Of a stretch of DNA of 64,000 nt, positions 21,699 to 27,225 are shown in pieces. Position 1 is the first letter of the stretch. Every line of letters starts with the position of its first letter. Source of the stretch: Actinomycetota bacterium. GTDB lineage: Bacteria > Actinomycetota > Thermoleophilia > Miltoncostaeales > Miltoncostaeaceae. The stretch lies in contig CAUJCX010000020.1 of NCBI GenBank assembly GCA_963169235.1, positions 124,001 to 188,000 of the forward strand, given 5' to 3'. The notes beneath the pieces were generated by a model. It was not told the origin of the DNA. It saw nothing but the letters and a program-made list of their open reading frames with translations, and did not search any database. The position numbers and the translations under genes are program-made.

Positions 21699-23852
21699 CT
21701 AGCGGATGAACAGCATCTCGGAGTACTTGGGCAGCGGCCACAGGTCGTCCGCCACGATGCGCTCCAGGCGGTCGGCCAGCAGGCGCACCCCGTTCATCGC
21801 CGGGATCACCGTGTCGCGCATGTAGAAGACCTCGTCCTCCACCTTCTCGGGGTGCACGGCGTTGGCCTTCGCCAGCTGGTTGACGGCACTGACGAAGTCC
21901 TCCACCAGCGGCTTGACGTCGCCGATCGCGCCGGCGACGCCGGACTGCTGGATGACGGCCAGATAGCGCAGGGCGGCCGGCAGCAGCATGGTGCGGGCGA
22001 TGTCGGCAGCCGTCTCGGCCTCGATGTTGATGTGGGCGATGTACTGCTCGAGGCCCACCTCGTACCGGGCGTGCATCTCGCGCTCGTTCAGCACCCCGTA
22101 GTTGGAGAACGTGGCCAGCGCGGTCTCCGACACGATCTGCGGCAGCGCGTCCGGCGTGGTGCGCAGGTTCAGCAGGCCGCGGCGGGCGGCCTCCTCGTGC
22201 CACTCCTGCGAGTAGCCGTCGCCGGCGAACACGATGCGGCTGTGCTTCTTGTACGTGCGACCCACCACGATGGCCACGGCCTCGTCGATGCGCGCCTTGC
22301 CCTTGCTGTCCGACTTGGCGATCTCGGCCTCGACGTCCTCGCGCAGCGCGTCGATGGACTCCGCGACGATGGTGTTGAGCACCGTGTTGGGGAAGCTGGT
22401 CGACTGGCTGGCGCCCAGGGCCCGGAACTCGAACTTGTTGCCGGTGAACGCAAACGGGCTGGTGCGGTTGCGGTCGCCCGGGTCCAACGGCAGGTCGGGC
22501 AGCACCTGGCTGCCGAGGCCCATGAACTTGCCGCGCGAGGTCACGTACACCTCGCCGTCCGCGAAGCCCTGGAACACGCGCGCCAGCTCGCCGCCGAGGA
22601 AGATGGAGATGATCGCGGGCGGGGCCTCGTTGGCTCCCAGGCGGTGGTCCTGGCCCGCCGTCGCCACGGTGGCGCGCAGGAGGCCCTGGTGCACGTCGAC
22701 GGCGCGGATCACCGCGGCGGCGAAGAACAGGAACTGGAGGTTGTCGTGCGGCGTCGCGCCCGGCTCCAGCAGGTTCTCGCCCGTGTCCGTGCTGAGCGAC
22801 CAGTTGTTGTGCTTGCCCGAGCCGTTGACGCCCTGGAACGGCTTCTCGTGCAGCAGGCACACCAGGCCGTACTTCGGGGCCTCGCGCTTGAGGATGGTCA
22901 TGAGCAGCTGCTGGTGATCGCAGCCCAGGTTGGTGGTCTCGAACACCGGCGCGATCTCGTACTGGCCGGGCGCCACCTCGTTGTGCCGCGTCTTGACGGG
23001 CACGCCCAGGCGCATCAGCTGCTCCTCGGTGTCCATCATGTACGCCAGCACGCGCTCGGGGATGGTGCCGAAGTAGTGGTCGTCCAGCTCGTGGCCCTTC
23101 GGGGGCTTGGCGCCGAACAACGTGCGGCCCGTGTTCACCAGGTCGGGGCGCTGGTAGTAGTAGTTCTGATCGATCAGGAAGTACTCCTGCTCGGCGCCCA
23201 TCGTGGTCGACACGCGTCCCACGCCCCGCCGGCCCAGCACCTCCAGGGCCTTCCCTGACGCCTTGCCGATGGCCTCCAGCGAGCGCAAGAGCGGGATCTT
23301 GTGGTCGAGCGCCTCACCCGTCCACGACGTGAACGCCGTCGGGATGCACAGCGTCACGCCGTTGGGGTTGCGCATCAGGAACGCGGGGCTGGTGGGGTCC
23401 CACGCCGTGTAGCCGCGGGCCTCGAACGTCGCCCGGATGCCGCCGGTGGGGAAGCTCGACGCGTCCGGCTCGCCCCGCACCAGCTGCTTGCCGCTGAAGC
23501 TGGCCAGGCTGGTGCCGCCCTCCACCGGGTCGAAGAACGAGTCGTGCTTCTCGGCCGTCGAGTTGGTGAGCGGCTGGAACCAGTGCGTGTAGTGCGTCGC
23601 GCCGTGCTCGAGGGCCCAGTCCTTCATGGCCTGGGCGACCGAGTCGGCGATACCGGGGTCCAGCGAGTCGCCGCGCTCCACGGTGTTCTGGAGCACCTTG
23701 TAGATCTCCTTGGGCAGGCGCTTGCGCTGCTCGGACGAGCCGAAGACGTCGTCGCCGAAGTGCGACTCGGTGACCGCACCGGGCGCGCGCCGGCGCGCGG
23801 GGTCGGGCACCCACTGCACGGCGCTGACGTTGGCGAGCCGGATCTTCGGCAT
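21699..23852 (-). CDS. glnN: Glutamine synthetase type III
   Basis: A 717-residue GSIII enzyme, the large hexameric or dodecameric form of glutamine synthetase. Conserved points are [18 protein letters not shown] near the N-terminus, [14 protein letters not shown] with metal-binding glutamates, [37 protein letters not shown], and [16 protein letters not shown]. Length matches the family (~700-730). The ATG at 23852 has AAGGGA upstream; the frame extends further but without a ribosome site. It is divergent from a PucR-type regulator that may control it, and is followed by glnA, so two isozymes lie side by side. Confidence 0.95.
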
Positions 23853-24017
23853 GTGGTGACGTCCCTTCGTAGAGATCAAGCGGGAGGAGCGGCGACGCGC
23901 ACGTGCCGTTGGGTCACGGCTCGGGACGTGGACGTCCGCTTCGGGGGTGAGACGAAATGTAGGGCAGGCGCCCGCCACGCTCGACCGACGCGCGCACAAG
24001 ATGCCGGGCCGCGGTTT

Positions 24018-24036
24018 GGACCTGCGTACAAGGTCC
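24018..24036. promoter_or_regulatory. GGACCT-N7-AGGTCC palindrome, candidate operator
   Basis: GGACCT (24018-24023) and AGGTCC (24031-24036) flank GCGTACA in the divergent region between the type III glutamine synthetase and the PucR-type gene. It is about 35 bp upstream of the TATCCT box, a good place for a regulator controlling both genes. Which protein binds is unknown. Confidence 0.4.
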
Positions 24037-24070
24037 GCTTGCGCGCCGTCGCCGCCGGGCCGAACCGTTC

Positions 24071-24076
24071 TATCCT
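24071..24076 (+). promoter_or_regulatory. TATCCT box 7 nt before GTG (leaderless-type -10)
   Basis: TATCCT is 7 nt before the GTG at 24084, with no ribosome site between. It fits a leaderless message for the PucR-type regulator. Confidence 0.45.
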
Positions 24077-24083
24077 GTCACAG

Positions 24084-25697
24084 GTGAACCCCCGTTCCGG
24101 ACATCGCGACACGCCGCGCGGCGCGCCCGCGGTGGCGTCCCCCACGCTGGGCGACCTGGGCGGCGTGCTGGCGGACAGCGTCGCGGCCCTGACCGCGTCC
24201 CAGCGCGCGTTGCGCATCGACGGGGTGCGGCTGGCCGACGCGGGCGACGAGGGCGGCGACCGCGATGTGCTGGTGGCCCACGTCGCCCCCGAGCGCGTCC
24301 CCCGCGGCGTGGTGGCCGTGGTGGCGCGCCGCGGGTCGTCCGAGCGCGTGCCGGTGCTGGTGCCGCCCGACGGCGTGCCGTGGGGAGCGGTGCTCGCCGA
24401 CGTCGTGGACGCCATCGACGTGACGCCGCGCCGCGCCGCCGAGCGCGCGCGGGCCGCCCTGCGCGTGCCGCTGGTGGAAGGTGGCGGCTGGGACCGCCTC
24501 GCGGACGTCGCGTCGCAGTTGCTGGGCGCCGGCGTCGCCGTGGTCGACGACCACCTGGACGTGCTTGCCGCCGCGGCACCGTCCGGCGACGGCGGCGACC
24601 TGCGCACCGAGCTGCCCGGCGACGCCACCACGCTGCGCGGGTTCCTCGAAGCCGACGCGGCCGGGCAGCTGCGCGTGGGCGTGCCCGGCGCCGGCGAGCG
24701 GCCGGTGGCCGCGGTGGTCGTGCGGGGCGAGGCCCCCCTGCCGCGCTCGCACGCGGCGGTGCTCGACGAGCTGGTCGCTGCGTGCGCCATCGAGTGGAGC
24801 CGGCAGGAGCTGCGCACCGCCACCGAGTCGCAACTGCGGGGCGACCTCATCCGCGAGCTGATGGCGGGCGAGTCGATCAGCCGCGAGTCGCTCATCCGGC
24901 GGGCCCGCCACCTGGGGGCCGACCTGGCGGGAGGGGCGGTCGCGGTGCTTGGCGCGGTGGGCGACCCGGCCACGGCCGAGCCCCCCGACGACCGGGTCAC
25001 GCGGCGGCTGGTGCGCCTGGCGCGCGGGGTGATCGACCTGCACTGGCCCCAGGCCCTCGTCGACTGGGACGGCGCGCGCCTGCTGCTGTTGCTGCCCGGC
25101 CCCCGCGACGACGCCGACGTCGACCGCGCGGCCGTGGAGCAGCGCGCGCACGCCCTCACCACCCGGCTCGTCGCCGCCGCGTCCGAATCGGTGCCCGGGC
25201 TCACCCTGGCGATCTCGCGCTTCACCCCCGACCCCGAGCGGCTGGGGGCGGCGCTCGAGGAGGCCGGCCTGGCGCTGGCCATCGGGGCGCGGCTGGGGCG
25301 CTCGGGCGACGTGATCACGTTCGAGGAGACCGGCACGTACAAGCTGCTGTTCCAGATCTTCGCCGAGCGGCCCGAGGAGCTGTCGGGTTTCTACCAGCAG
25401 ACCATCGCGCCGCTGGTGCGCTACGACGAGCAGTACCAGACCGAGCTGGTCGGCACGATGTCGACGTACCTCGAGCTCGACTGCAACCTGTCGGCGACGG
25501 CCGCCACGCTGTTCACCCACCGCCACACCGTGCGCTACCGCCTCGACCGCATCGCGGAGCTCTCGGGGCTCGAGATCGGCCGCACCGAGGACCGCGAGCA
25601 GCTGACCTTGGGCCTCAAGGCCATGCGCCTCCTGGGCAAGGCCATCCCGGTGCCGCTGGCCAAGGAGGCCAACCTGCGGGCCCCGCGCCCGGGATAG
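24084..25697 (+). CDS. PucR family transcriptional regulator
   Basis: A 537-residue regulator. The GTG at 24084 is favoured over the long upstream extension because of the TATCCT box. Residues 1-~350 form a loosely conserved sensory part with purine-catabolism-regulator character. A GGDEF-like middle region follows (LTLAISRFTPDPERLGAALEEAG). The C-terminus has the PucR helix-turn-helix (YLELDCNLSATAATLFTHRHTVRYRLDRI near residue 470). PucR proteins often control nitrogen or purine genes, consistent with the divergent glutamine synthetase. The inducer is unknown. Confidence 0.88.
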   Translation: MNPRSGHRDTPRGAPAVASPTLGDLGGVLADSVAALTASQRALRIDGVRLADAGDEGGDRDVLVAHVAPERVPRGVVAVVARRGSSERVPVLVPPDGVPWGAVLADVVDAIDVTPRRAAERARAALRVPLVEGGGWDRLADVASQLLGAGVAVVDDHLDVLAAAAPSGDGGDLRTELPGDATTLRGFLEADAAGQLRVGVPGAGERPVAAVVVRGEAPLPRSHAAVLDELVAACAIEWSRQELRTATESQLRGDLIRELMAGESISRESLIRRARHLGADLAGGAVAVLGAVGDPATAEPPDDRVTRRLVRLARGVIDLHWPQALVDWDGARLLLLLPGPRDDADVDRAAVEQRAHALTTRLVAAASESVPGLTLAISRFTPDPERLGAALEEAGLALAIGARLGRSGDVITFEETGTYKLLFQIFAERPEELSGFYQQTIAPLVRYDEQYQTELVGTMSTYLELDCNLSATAATLFTHRHTVRYRLDRIAELSGLEIGRTEDREQLTLGLKAMRLLGKAIPVPLAKEANLRAPRPG

Positions 25698-25783: not shown

Positions 25784-25797
25784 TTAGGGCGACCTAA
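25784..25797 (+). promoter_or_regulatory. TTAGG-GCGA-CCTAA palindrome, candidate metal-regulator operator
   Basis: TTAGGGCGACCTAA is a perfect 5-bp inverted repeat just before the ribosome site (AAAGGA) of the Cys-rich gene at 25813. A TATCGT box lies at 25762-25767, so the site would fall in the early transcribed region. A related shorter palindrome overlaps the ferritin-like gene promoter. Together with the adjacent Fur-family gene this suggests iron- or peroxide-responsive control, but the match to a known box is partial. Confidence 0.45.
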
Positions 25798-25812
25798 AGG
25801 AACGCACCCCGC

Positions 25813-25992
25813 ATGGGTAAGACCCTCGCCGCGAAGAAGACGTGCTGCGGAGACCGCCCCCGGTGCCGCAACTGTCCCGTGGTGCTGCAGCGGCTCGAGG
25901 ACGCCGGCATGACCGAGCGCGTGGGCAAGCGCCGCTGGCGGGTGGTGGAGCCGCCGTCGAAGCTGCAGCTGATGGCCGCGAGGGTGCGATGA
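25813..25992 (+). CDS. Small Cys-rich protein (59 aa), possible zinc-binding
   Basis: Begins MGKTLAAKKTCCGDRPRCRN and has a CC-x5-C-x2-C arrangement followed by PVVLQRLEDAG and a basic C-terminus. The motif, adjacent basic residues and ~60-residue length fit a family of short actinobacterial proteins of unknown role, probably metal-binding (family recall, not checked). AAAGGA precedes the start. Its stop overlaps the next gene (ATGA), and the palindrome TTAGGGCGACCTAA lies upstream. Confidence 0.75.
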   Translation: MGKTLAAKKTCCGDRPRCRNCPVVLQRLEDAGMTERVGKRRWRVVEPPSKLQLMAARVR

Positions 25993-26174
25993 CGCGCGAA
26001 CCAGACTTTCCCGTCCACGGCGCCCGCGCGCGCCTGCTGGCCCGCTTCGACCGCGACTTCCGGGCCTGGCTCGACACGCCCCAGGGGCGTTTCGCCGTGT
26101 GGGAGGCGCGCGTGCCGTGCTGGGTGCAGGCCGCGCGCGAACGCGCCCAGAACCAGGTGCCGACCGAGCGTTAG
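25989..26174 (+). CDS. Small basic/aromatic protein (61 aa), unknown
   Basis: The ATG lies in an ATGA overlap with the Cys-rich gene. Sequence is rich in Arg, Ala and aromatic residues (ARLLARFDRDFRAWLDTPQG, RFAVWEARVPCWVQAARERA). It has no signal peptide, membrane segment or known motif. Its 3' end overlaps the Fur-family gene on the other strand by 4 bp. The pair with the Cys-rich gene looks like one operon. Function unknown. Confidence 0.65.
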   Translation: MTREPDFPVHGARARLLARFDRDFRAWLDTPQGRFAVWEARVPCWVQAARERAQNQVPTER

Positions 26175-26620
26175 GCGGCGCGTGGCGTCGCCGCGCACAC
26201 GGCGCACACCCCGCGCACGACCACCTGGGTGTCGTCGGGTATGAAGCCCATGCTCTCGGCGGCGCGCAGCAGCTCGGCGCTGTCGACCGTAGCGTCGATG
26301 TCGACGATGGCACCACAGCGGCGGCACGCGACGTGGTGGTGCGCGTCGGTGCGGGTGTCGAACACGGCGGCCCCGCCCTCGGTGGCGACGCGGCGCAGCA
26401 GGCCGACGTCCTCCAGCAGATCGAGCGTGGCGTACACCGTCGGCAGCGAGATGCCCGGCACCCGGTCGCTGGCCAGCGCGAACACCTCGTCCACCGTCAC
26501 GTGGCGGCGCCCCAGGCTCTCGACGACGGCGTTGATGGCCAGCCGCTGCGGCGTGACCCGCTGGCCGCGCCGGCGCAGCTCGTCGCGCAGCCGGGTGGTG
26601 GTGGTGGTGGCGTCGCTCAT
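26171..26620 (-). CDS. Fur/PerR family transcriptional regulator
   Basis: A 149-residue metal-dependent repressor. The N-terminal winged helix is RGQRVTPQRLAINAV, with SLPTVYATLDLLEDVGLLRRV as recognition region. DAHHHVACRRCG supplies the metal-site histidines and first CxxC, and CAVCAATP the second CxxC of the structural zinc site. Such proteins repress iron-storage or peroxide-stress genes when metallated. It is divergent from the ferritin-like gene, with an operator-like palindrome between. Which metal it senses cannot be told. Confidence 0.92.
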   Translation of the reverse strand: MSDATTTTTRLRDELRRRGQRVTPQRLAINAVVESLGRRHVTVDEVFALASDRVPGISLPTVYATLDLLEDVGLLRRVATEGGAAVFDTRTDAHHHVACRRCGAIVDIDATVDSAELLRAAESMGFIPDDTQVVVRGVCAVCAATPRAA

Positions 26621-26661
26621 CTCTCCCCAAAGCTACACCAATGTCAACGCTGTTACGAGCC

Positions 26662-26690
26662 TTGCGTTATCTTTAGCGACTAAGTAGAGT
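26662..26690 (+). promoter_or_regulatory. Promoter of ferritin-like gene with overlapping TTAG-CGA-CTAA palindrome
   Basis: TTGCGT (26662-26667) and TAGAGT (26685-26690) are separated by 17 nt, an ideal spacing for a -35/-10 pair. The spacer contains TTAGCGACTAA (26673-26683), an inverted repeat resembling the TTAGGGCGACCTAA site at 25784. The divergent Fur-family gene starts 40 bp away. A repressor bound here would block polymerase. Confidence 0.6.
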
Positions 26691-26724: not shown

Positions 26725-27225
26725 ATGGCCACGAAGTCCAAGGTCTCCGCGGGCATCCTGTCCGACGCGCAGGCCGACAAGCGGGGCGAGATCGTCACGC
26801 TGCTCGAGCGGGCGTACTGGATGGAGATGGAGACGGTGATGAACTACCTCGCCATCTCCGAGACGCTCGACGGCATCCGCGCCCACCAGGTGGCGGAGTC
26901 GCTGGCGTCCGACGTGAAGGACGAGCTCGGCCACGCGCAGGCGTTCGCCGCGCGCATCAAGGACCTGTACGGCACGCCGCCCGGCTCGATGGACTTCACG
27001 GCCGACCAGACGTACCTGCAGCCGCCGGCCGACCCCACCGATGTCGTCTCGGTGATCAAGGGCGTCATCCAGGCCGAAGCGGGCGCCATCGAGCACTACA
27101 TGCACGTCATCGAGGTGTGCGACGGCGTCGACTGGGCCACGCAGGACATGGTCATCGAGATCATGCGCGACGAGGAGGGCCACCTGCGCGAGTTCGAGCG
27201 CTTCCTCAAGGAGTACGACAAGTAG
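26725..27225 (+). CDS. Ferritin-like/bacterioferritin-type protein
   Basis: A 166-residue four-helix protein with a GAGGAAAGG ribosome site ~13 nt upstream of ATG 26725. Diiron-type positions are visible: ERAYWMEMETVMNYL (Glu), KDELGHAQAF (Glu-x2-His), QAEAGAIEHYMHV (Glu) and RDEEGHLREFERFL (Glu-x2-His). That gives two Glu-x2-His pairs and extra glutamates as in the ferritin superfamily. It probably stores or oxidises iron. The promoter carries a Fur-type palindrome. It ends at a hairpin against the convergent pabC. Confidence 0.85.
   Translation: MATKSKVSAGILSDAQADKRGEIVTLLERAYWMEMETVMNYLAISETLDGIRAHQVAESLASDVKDELGHAQAFAARIKDLYGTPPGSMDFTADQTYLQPPADPTDVVSVIKGVIQAEAGAIEHYMHVIEVCDGVDWATQDMVIEIMRDEEGHLREFERFLKEYDK

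What the first reader, a model, noticed from the sequence alone, without database searches (positions are those of the whole stretch)
25784..26690. Shared palindromes near a Fur-family gene and a ferritin-like gene
TTAGGGCGACCTAA before the Cys-rich gene (25784-25797) and TTAGCGACTAA inside the ferritin-like promoter (26673-26683) share a TTAG...CTAA inverted-repeat form. Both flank the Fur/PerR-type gene. The second site sits between a TTGCGT and TAGAGT pair with 17-nt spacing, an ideal repression point. They may define the operator of this regulator and place the tiny Cys-rich protein in a metal regulon.
Basis: partly seen in the sequence, partly recalled or inferred. Interest (0 to 1): 0.58.

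Follow-up and report, generated by a model that had tools for sequence, protein, structure and literature searches.

The report
Iron box before ferritin-linked small proteins
Two look-alike DNA palindromes turn out to be different things: one looks like an iron-responsive switch of the IdeR/DtxR type in front of two tiny unstudied proteins that travel with iron-storage genes, and the other is probably a chance-perfect piece of the neighbouring ferritin promoter.

Summary
Both palindromes exist as stated, and TTAG-N1-8-CTAA occurs only twice in the window (0.03 expected). They are not two copies of one Fur operator.

Site 1, TTAGGGCGACCTAA, fits TTAGGNNNNCCTAA, the 14-bp one-dimer consensus proposed for IdeR/DtxR (PMC8464063). 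The own genome has four exact copies and one near copy, by an ABC ATPase, FTR1, FeoA, a DUF3386 gene and the Cys-rich gene. The motif recurs before homologues of the Cys-rich gene (at least 9 of 10 bases in 30 of 64 loci; 3 of 1291 control windows). In Kribbella it is nearly the full 19-bp IdeR box; in the own genome the overlapping second half is missing.

The Cys-rich ORF (CC-x5-C-x2-C, no Pfam family) and the ORF overlapping its stop form a likely operon. The first is divergent from a BfrB-type ferritin in 34 of 64 loci. The second lies near the Dps-like gene in 16 of 30. I infer iron-starvation-induced ferritin partners, perhaps Bfd analogues (about 0.35).

Site 2, TTAGCGACTAA, is in 1 of 30 Dps-gene upstreams. 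A T-rich block around it is shared by 13 of 30 and may be a Fur/PerR operator.

The parts
25784..25797 (.). Site 1: TTAGGGCGACCTAA, IdeR/DtxR-type one-dimer half-site
   Evidence: consensus from PMC8464063
25813..25992 (+). 59-aa Cys-rich protein, CC-x5-C-x2-C, no Pfam or NCBIfam family
25989..26174 (+). orf2, 61-aa two-helix protein, start overlaps the Cys-rich stop (ATGA); family linked to the Dps-like gene
26171..26620 (-). Fur-family regulator (PF01475), PerR-like metal residues
26658..26690 (+). Promoter/operator block of the Dps-like gene conserved in 13 of 30 upstreams; includes TTGCGT 26662-26667 and TAGAGT 26685-26690
26673..26683 (.). Site 2: TTAGCGACTAA, perfect palindrome inside that block, not conserved as such
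26725..27225 (+). Dps-like ferritin (PF00210)

Best explanation
Site 1 is the operator of an iron-responsive DtxR-family repressor: a single-dimer IdeR half-site (TTAGGN4CCTAA) controlling a likely two-gene operon of small proteins, the Cys-rich protein and orf2. With iron, the metal-loaded repressor sits on the box and blocks transcription; without iron, the operon and the genome's iron genes with the same box are expressed. Shown here by sequence: the motif, its enrichment, its iron-gene neighbours, its conservation before the family, and the ferritin linkage. Inferred at about 0.35: the two proteins act on ferritins (BfrB-type and Dps-like), the Cys4 protein as a redox or iron-release partner comparable to Bfd. 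Site 2 is a separate matter: it lies in a conserved Dps promoter block that may hold the operator of the adjacent Fur/PerR-type regulator, but the perfect palindrome is peculiar to this genome. The confidence given is for the regulatory part.
For: TTAGGN4CCTAA: 4 exact sites in the own genome and 1 near site, 0.28 expected for exact ones, beside ABC_tran+TOBE_2, FTR1, FeoA, DUF3386 and the Cys-rich gene. Same consensus proposed for one IdeR dimer (PMC8464063). At least 9 of 10 bases upstream of the Cys-rich gene in 30 of 64 named loci, 3 of 1291 control windows. 19-mer scores of 15-16 of 19 in 12 of 12 Kribbella-type loci. 109 copies against 1 backwards control in 20 genomes that I selected. 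Of 16 sampled sites elsewhere, 7 lie by clear iron genes, 3 ambiguous, 6 not assigned; one lies 72 nt before a DtxR-family gene (L143). Two PF02742 regulators in the genome. Ferritin divergent within 600 nt in 34 of 64; box 12 nt or less before orf2 in 6 of 16.
Against: No binding or expression data. 34 of 64 named loci lack a 9-of-10 box, including 0 of 11 Patulibacter-like loci and the two nearest relatives with Fur and Dps beside the gene (L015, L020), whose genomes have no exact box at all although they carry DtxR-family genes. A Fur-type regulator could in principle also serve iron-uptake genes. The best-conserved DtxR paralogue (L007) looks MntR-like rather than IdeR-like.
Confidence: 0.8

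Rival explanations
1. Both palindromes are operators of the window's Fur/PerR-type regulator.
For: TTAG...CTAA is rare: 2 in the window against 0.03 expected. The regulator gene lies between them. In near relatives the Cys-rich, Fur-type and Dps-like genes stay together.
Against: The spacings differ (14 and 11 bp) and only the 14-bp form recurs. Site 1 has the published IdeR one-dimer sequence and Kribbella homologues the IdeR 19-mer. The 11-mer is in 1 of 30 Dps upstreams. Recalled Fur and PerR boxes score at shuffle level at both places.
Confidence: 0.06
2. The box is read by the MntR-like DtxR paralogue (L007), so the operon answers to manganese or to both metals.
For: L007 is the stronger DtxR-family match and is closest in the PDB to 5zr4 'Metal-dependent transcriptional regulator' (5e-45). 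Orthologues with the same ligand pattern are common in the class.
Against: Neighbouring genes are iron genes. The own Nramp gene has a different palindrome, TTAGCC..GGCTAA. L008-type proteins keep more of the IdeR recognition helix, and one such gene has a box 72 nt upstream.
Confidence: 0.2
3. The Cys-rich protein is a tiny Fe-S or Zn sensing DNA-binding regulator (half of a winged helix plus a Cys4 site), not a ferritin partner.
For: Helix followed by a beta hairpin in a model with mean pLDDT 89. Single weak profile matches to MarR and Crp HTH (0.05, 0.13) and FeoC (0.84). Several wHTH chains among weak structural matches, Z 2-3. Strongly basic.
Against: Matches are at noise level: no Foldseek match at E <= 0.001 and the top Z of 3.2 is to a methyltransferase. 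Linkage is to ferritin genes rather than to one recurring target promoter.
Confidence: 0.25
4. Site 2's palindrome is a chance feature of a conserved promoter that needs no Fur-type operator there.
For: The 11-mer is unique to this genome and its backwards control also occurs once. Of 13 upstreams with the block, 7 have no Fur-type gene found in the fetched locus. Recalled Fur/PerR boxes score at chance.
Against: Conservation reaches beyond the -10 (A-27, TT-18/-17, TTTT and AA near -15 to -10), as an operator would. Dpr/Dps under PerR is a known arrangement (PMC7762939 passage).
Confidence: 0.4

Closest known systems
IdeR half-site (TTAGGNNNNCCTAA) of Saccharopolyspora erythraea
   Same: Same 14-bp consensus; iron genes; DtxR-family regulators present
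   Different: There it was one case (nuo promoter) beside 19-bp boxes; here all five own-genome sites are half-sites, in another class (Thermoleophilia by inference)
IdeR/DtxR 19-bp iron box of Actinomycetes
   Same: Kribbella homologues of the Cys-rich gene carry 15-16 of 19
   Different: The overlapping second half is absent at the window's site (14 of 19; second dimer half 4 of 10)
Bfd, bacterioferritin-associated [2Fe-2S] ferredoxin
   Same: Small Cys4 protein, gene beside a ferritin gene, expected to be expressed oppositely to it
   Different: No Fer2_BFD match, Cys spacing CC-x5-C-x2-C, partner would be non-heme BfrB-type or Dps-like ferritin; activity untested
PerR-regulated Dps/MrgA/Dpr pairs
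   Same: PerR-like Fur-family gene divergent from a Dps-like gene with a conserved promoter block
   Different: No canonical PerR box; some genomes have IdeR-type boxes before the same gene instead
FeoC [Fe-S]-dependent wHTH protein
   Same: Small, Cys4, iron setting, possible helix plus wing
   Different: Cys cluster lies before the helix, not in the wing; profile match only E = 0.84 in one member

Membership tests
IdeR/DtxR operator | 14-bp one-dimer consensus TTAGGNNNNCCTAA | tested here: met
   10 of 10 fixed bases; consensus from PMC8464063
IdeR/DtxR operator | Full 19-bp box with a second overlapping half | tested here: not met
   14 of 19; second half 4 or 2 of 10
IdeR/DtxR operator | Recurs at iron genes of the genome | tested here: met
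   FTR1, FeoA, ABC ATPase, DUF3386
IdeR/DtxR operator | DtxR-family regulator in the genome | tested here: met
   2 PF02742 matches
IdeR/DtxR operator | Metal-dependent binding | not testable with these tools
   needs gel shift
Fur/PerR operator (site 2) | Canonical Fur or PerR box | tested here: not met
   best 10 of 19 and 8 of 15, p 0.33 and 0.71 (consensus strings recalled)
Fur/PerR operator (site 2) | Conserved block in the promoter of the divergent gene | tested here: met
   13 of 30 upstreams, 6 of them with the Fur-type gene next door
PerR (window Fur-family protein) | Five metal ligands including the Asp of the CGxIVD motif | tested here: met
   aligned with B. subtilis PerR 2fe3; which residues are ligands is recalled
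PerR (window Fur-family protein) | NCBIfam PerR equivalog cut-off | tested here: not met
   70 and 68 bits against 200 and 180
Bfd | Fer2_BFD domain (PF04324) | tested here: not met
   not among Pfam matches of 29 members; none in the own genome
Bfd | [2Fe-2S] cluster and ferritin binding | not testable with these tools
   needs protein
FeoC / wHTH regulators | Winged-helix fold with Cys cluster | tested here: inconclusive
   FeoC model E = 0.84 in 1 of 29; VIA-align Z up to 3.0 to wHTH chains

The most novel reading that the evidence does not exclude
The class uses IdeR half-sites as its ordinary iron operator, and behind them keeps two undescribed small protein families, a Cys4 protein and a two-helix protein, that are dedicated partners of BfrB-type and Dps-like ferritins: a non-homologous counterpart of Bfd that mobilises stored iron in actinobacteria lacking Bfd.
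Probability: 0.33. Interest if true: 0.78.

Novelty: new variant of a known kind. Interest (0 to 1): 0.52.

Why it matters
A 2023 IdeR review says it 'remains to be investigated' whether half-sites occur in other genomes (PMC10317159). Here they appear in another actinobacterial class, at iron genes, with the second half missing at all five own-genome sites checked. The linked small proteins offer a concrete candidate for how ferritin iron could be released where there is no Bfd: the own genome has no Bfd domain hit, and a 2020 review calls the fate of Dps and encapsulin iron unclear (PMC7762939). Both ideas can be tested with ordinary laboratory strains.

Tried and rejected
One shared Fur operator: rejected on motif form, genome distribution and conservation. 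Canonical Fur/PerR boxes at either site: at shuffle level. Assigning the box to one DtxR paralogue by co-occurrence failed: all 21 genomes examined have DtxR-family genes, including those with no exact box. My regex found no protein in 9 of the 31 DtxR loci handled, so that classification is partial and by eye. Fold search of the Cys-rich model: 0 matches at E <= 0.001; 32 of 266 aligned chains with Z >= 2, best 3.2, a methyltransferase; absence of a family there excludes nothing. No fold search was run on the orf2 model, a plain helical hairpin. PDB profile searches gave noise: Cys-rich one hit at 0.9, orf2 two near 0.8. Paper searches with nothing to the point: five-term small-protein search, 0 papers; Solirubrobacter + IdeR, 1 unrelated paper; any two of IdeR/half site/Thermoleophilia, 4 papers, two of them the IdeR papers read; Bfd with actinobacteria, and BfrB with Bfd, listings only; PerR/Dps/FurA, listing only; a five-term DtxR/MntR motif search, listing only apart from the two IdeR papers. 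I claim no wider absence from print. Papers: PMC8464063, PMC10317159 and PMC7762939 were seen as passages only.

Selections and dropped rows: one search used 20 of the 35 other genomes with a Cys-rich match, chosen by me with a leaning to those with boxes. One search looked at 41 of 64 named loci. Searches scanned 83 of the 109 neighbour ORFs listed. A1 uses 29 of the 30 loci (L034 dropped: 9 nt upstream only; it counts as a miss). One search used Dps matches with E <= 1e-20, 59 of 78 genomes, copied by hand. One search used the 13 of 30 upstreams in which I saw the -10, anchored by hand. Searches scanned one or two called target ORFs for 12 of the 16 sampled relative sites, not every flanking ORF (L139, L141 had no target called; L145 is the Cys-rich locus itself). 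Named loci (L073-L136) and unnamed loci (L012-L041) overlap, so their counts must not be added. Fisher p-values ignore phylogeny.

Full report
What is there. The two palindromes are at the stated positions. The genes are a PucR-like regulator (24132-25694, +), a 59-aa Cys-rich ORF (25813-25992, +), a 61-aa ORF whose start overlaps that stop as ATGA (25989-26174, +), a Fur-family gene (26171-26620, -) and a Dps-like ferritin gene (26725-27225, +). Site 1 ends 15 nt before the Cys-rich start; site 2 lies in the divergent Fur/Dps promoter region between TTGCGT and TAGAGT. The window is contig C20:124001-188000 of a 2.94-Mb draft genome. Several class mates share contig lengths with Solirubrobacterales, Patulibacter and other Thermoleophilia records, so I take the class to be Thermoleophilia (inference).

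Are the two sites one motif? No. Genome-wide, the 14-bp spacing has five TTAGN6CTAA sites (backwards control 0); the 11-bp spacing has one, and its backwards control also one. Four of the five are TTAGGNNNNCCTAA, and one more appears with one mismatch (the backwards control has 2 at that tolerance). Base composition predicts 0.28 exact sites. The five TTAGG-type sites lie by an ABC ATPase with a TOBE_2 domain, an FTR1 permease, FeoA, a DUF3386 gene beside a NicO transporter, and the Cys-rich gene. The remaining TTAGN6CTAA site, TTAGCCACGGCTAA, is at the start of an Nramp gene and looks of another kind.

What site 1 is. TTAGGNNNNCCTAA is the consensus that a 2021 study proposed for IdeR after showing that one IdeR dimer binds half of the 19-bp box (PMC8464063, passages). 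A 2023 review says it remains to be investigated whether such half-sites occur in other genomes (PMC10317159, passages). At the own genome's sites and before homologues the overlapping second half scores 0-5 of 10, so these are half-sites. The 14-mer occurs 109 times, against 1 for the backwards control, in 20 class genomes that I picked from those carrying the Cys-rich gene; 16 of 20 have at least one. Of 16 such sites, one per genome, 7 lie by clear iron genes (Peripla_BP_2 twice, one with FecCD; FTR1 twice; a siderophore-type monooxygenase; a DtxR gene; the Cys-rich/ferritin pair), 3 by ambiguous ones (two SBPs, one adenylation enzyme) and 6 by none that I could assign.

The Cys-rich gene. 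Homologues are in 36 of 299 class genomes, and in 16 of 396 genomes sampled over the phylum, 10 of them outside the class. The 64 named loci include Solirubrobacter, Patulibacter, Conexibacter, Kribbella, Phytoactinopolyspora and Tetrasphaera records. Four Cys are invariant in 29 aligned members. No Pfam or NCBIfam family matches convincingly. Upstream of 30 unnamed loci, 12 have the box with at most one mismatch within 200 nt. Of 64 named loci, 30 have at least 9 of 10 bases (14 exact) within about 220 nt, against 3 of 1291 control windows from the same loci, none exact. Of 12 Kribbella-type loci, 10 reach 9 of 10, and all 12 match the IdeR 19-mer at 15-16 of 19 (mean 15.3; the 20 other box-bearing loci average 12.8). 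Against this, 0 of 11 Patulibacter-like loci have it, and the two near relatives with Fur and Dps beside the gene lack it too (L015, L020).

Ferritin linkage. In 34 of the 64 named loci a ferritin gene is divergent and within 600 nt; in 17 of these the box reaches 9 of 10 and in 16 it lies between the two starts. That ferritin is closest to M. tuberculosis BfrB (5e-48). In the window's family the Cys-rich gene sits instead beside the Fur-type and Dps-like genes (L012, L015, L020). Of 36 genomes with the Cys-rich gene, 32 have the BfrB-type ferritin (105 of 263 others), 30 the Dps-like gene at E <= 1e-20 (29 of 263), and 36 at least one (113 of 263). These numbers are not corrected for shared ancestry. 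The own genome's BfrB-type gene is at C47:45227-45718, about 3.4 kb from the FTR1 box.

The second small ORF. It recurs within about 750 nt of the Dps-like gene in 16 of 30 loci, own included. In 6 of these 16 a box (5 exact, 1 with one mismatch) ends 3-12 nt before its start codon or overlaps it by one base, with the Dps-like gene 38-174 nt downstream. It has no family match and is predicted as two helices. The box thus goes with orf2 in other genomes independently of the Cys-rich gene, and in the window both stand in one likely operon behind one box.

Site 2. The 11-mer occurs in 1 of 30 Dps upstreams. Aligned on the -10, 13 of the 30 share A-27, TT-18/-17 and T-4 without exception and a TTTTnAAG-like run between; the -10 reads TATAGT in most. 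Six of the 30 loci have the Fur-type gene divergent next door (L043, L046, L047, L048, L050, L053), all among the 13; the other 7 have none found within the fetched locus. In other genomes TTAGGN4CCTAA boxes precede the same gene (8 of 30 with at least 9 of 10 bases within 600 nt). The window's Fur-type protein keeps all five residues aligned with PerR's metal ligands (ligand list recalled), so a PerR-Dps pair is plausible, but no canonical PerR or Fur box is present.

Mechanism. With iron, a DtxR-family dimer occupies the half-site and stops the Cys-rich/orf2 operon; on iron starvation it leaves. Which paralogue reads the box is open. L008 keeps the Ser/Pro/Thr of the IdeR recognition helix (aligned by eye; contact residues from PMC10317159), and an L008-like gene in G211 has a box 72 nt upstream; L007 looks MntR-like. 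The protein function is inferred: small, Cys4, expected to rise on starvation, beside ferritin. [quoted passage not shown] No sequence relation to Bfd was found, and the genome has no Bfd domain hit. A mini winged-helix regulator is the main functional rival.

Verdict. The joint Fur-operator reading is not supported; the metal-regulon reading for the Cys-rich gene is supported, with IdeR/DtxR in place of Fur. The operator is a known kind in an under-described form, and the proteins behind it are not described in the libraries searched.

Noticed in passing
window 21702-25694: A type III glutamine synthetase gene lies divergent from a PucR-type regulator directly upstream of the operon; possibly a nitrogen-control pair, unrelated to the finding.
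   Followed up: no
L003 1501-1514 (G000:C21:57047-57060): The own Nramp gene start carries TTAGCCACGGCTAA followed by a second copy-like CTAGCCGCGGCTTT; perhaps the operator of the MntR-like paralogue.
   Followed up: no
L049 2173-2397 (- strand): This orf2 homologue has a Cys-rich tail (C..C..C..CEHH) that the others lack, as if the two small proteins' features were combined.
   Followed up: no
L004 1647-2309; L075 3264-4037: A DUF3386 gene follows an iron box in the own genome; by eye a similar protein is encoded just downstream of the Cys-rich gene in L075. DUF3386 may be an iron protein.
   Followed up: partly
L044, L045, L049, L051, L052 upstream of the Dps-like gene: In these genomes the orf2-Dps unit is preceded by IdeR-type boxes, while in the window the Dps gene has a Fur/PerR-type neighbour instead: a possible switch of regulator for the same ferritin.
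   Followed up: partly
L132 and L087 (record titles): The record titled Bifidobacterium breve MAG (L132) matches Svornostia-type loci in gene order, and 'Streptomyces sp. SID13031' (L087) matches Kribbella loci; both titles are probably wrong.
   Followed up: no
L005 1473-1514 (G000:C47): The FTR1 promoter has a second partial box (TTTTAGGTCACGG) about 27 nt before the exact one.
   Followed up: no
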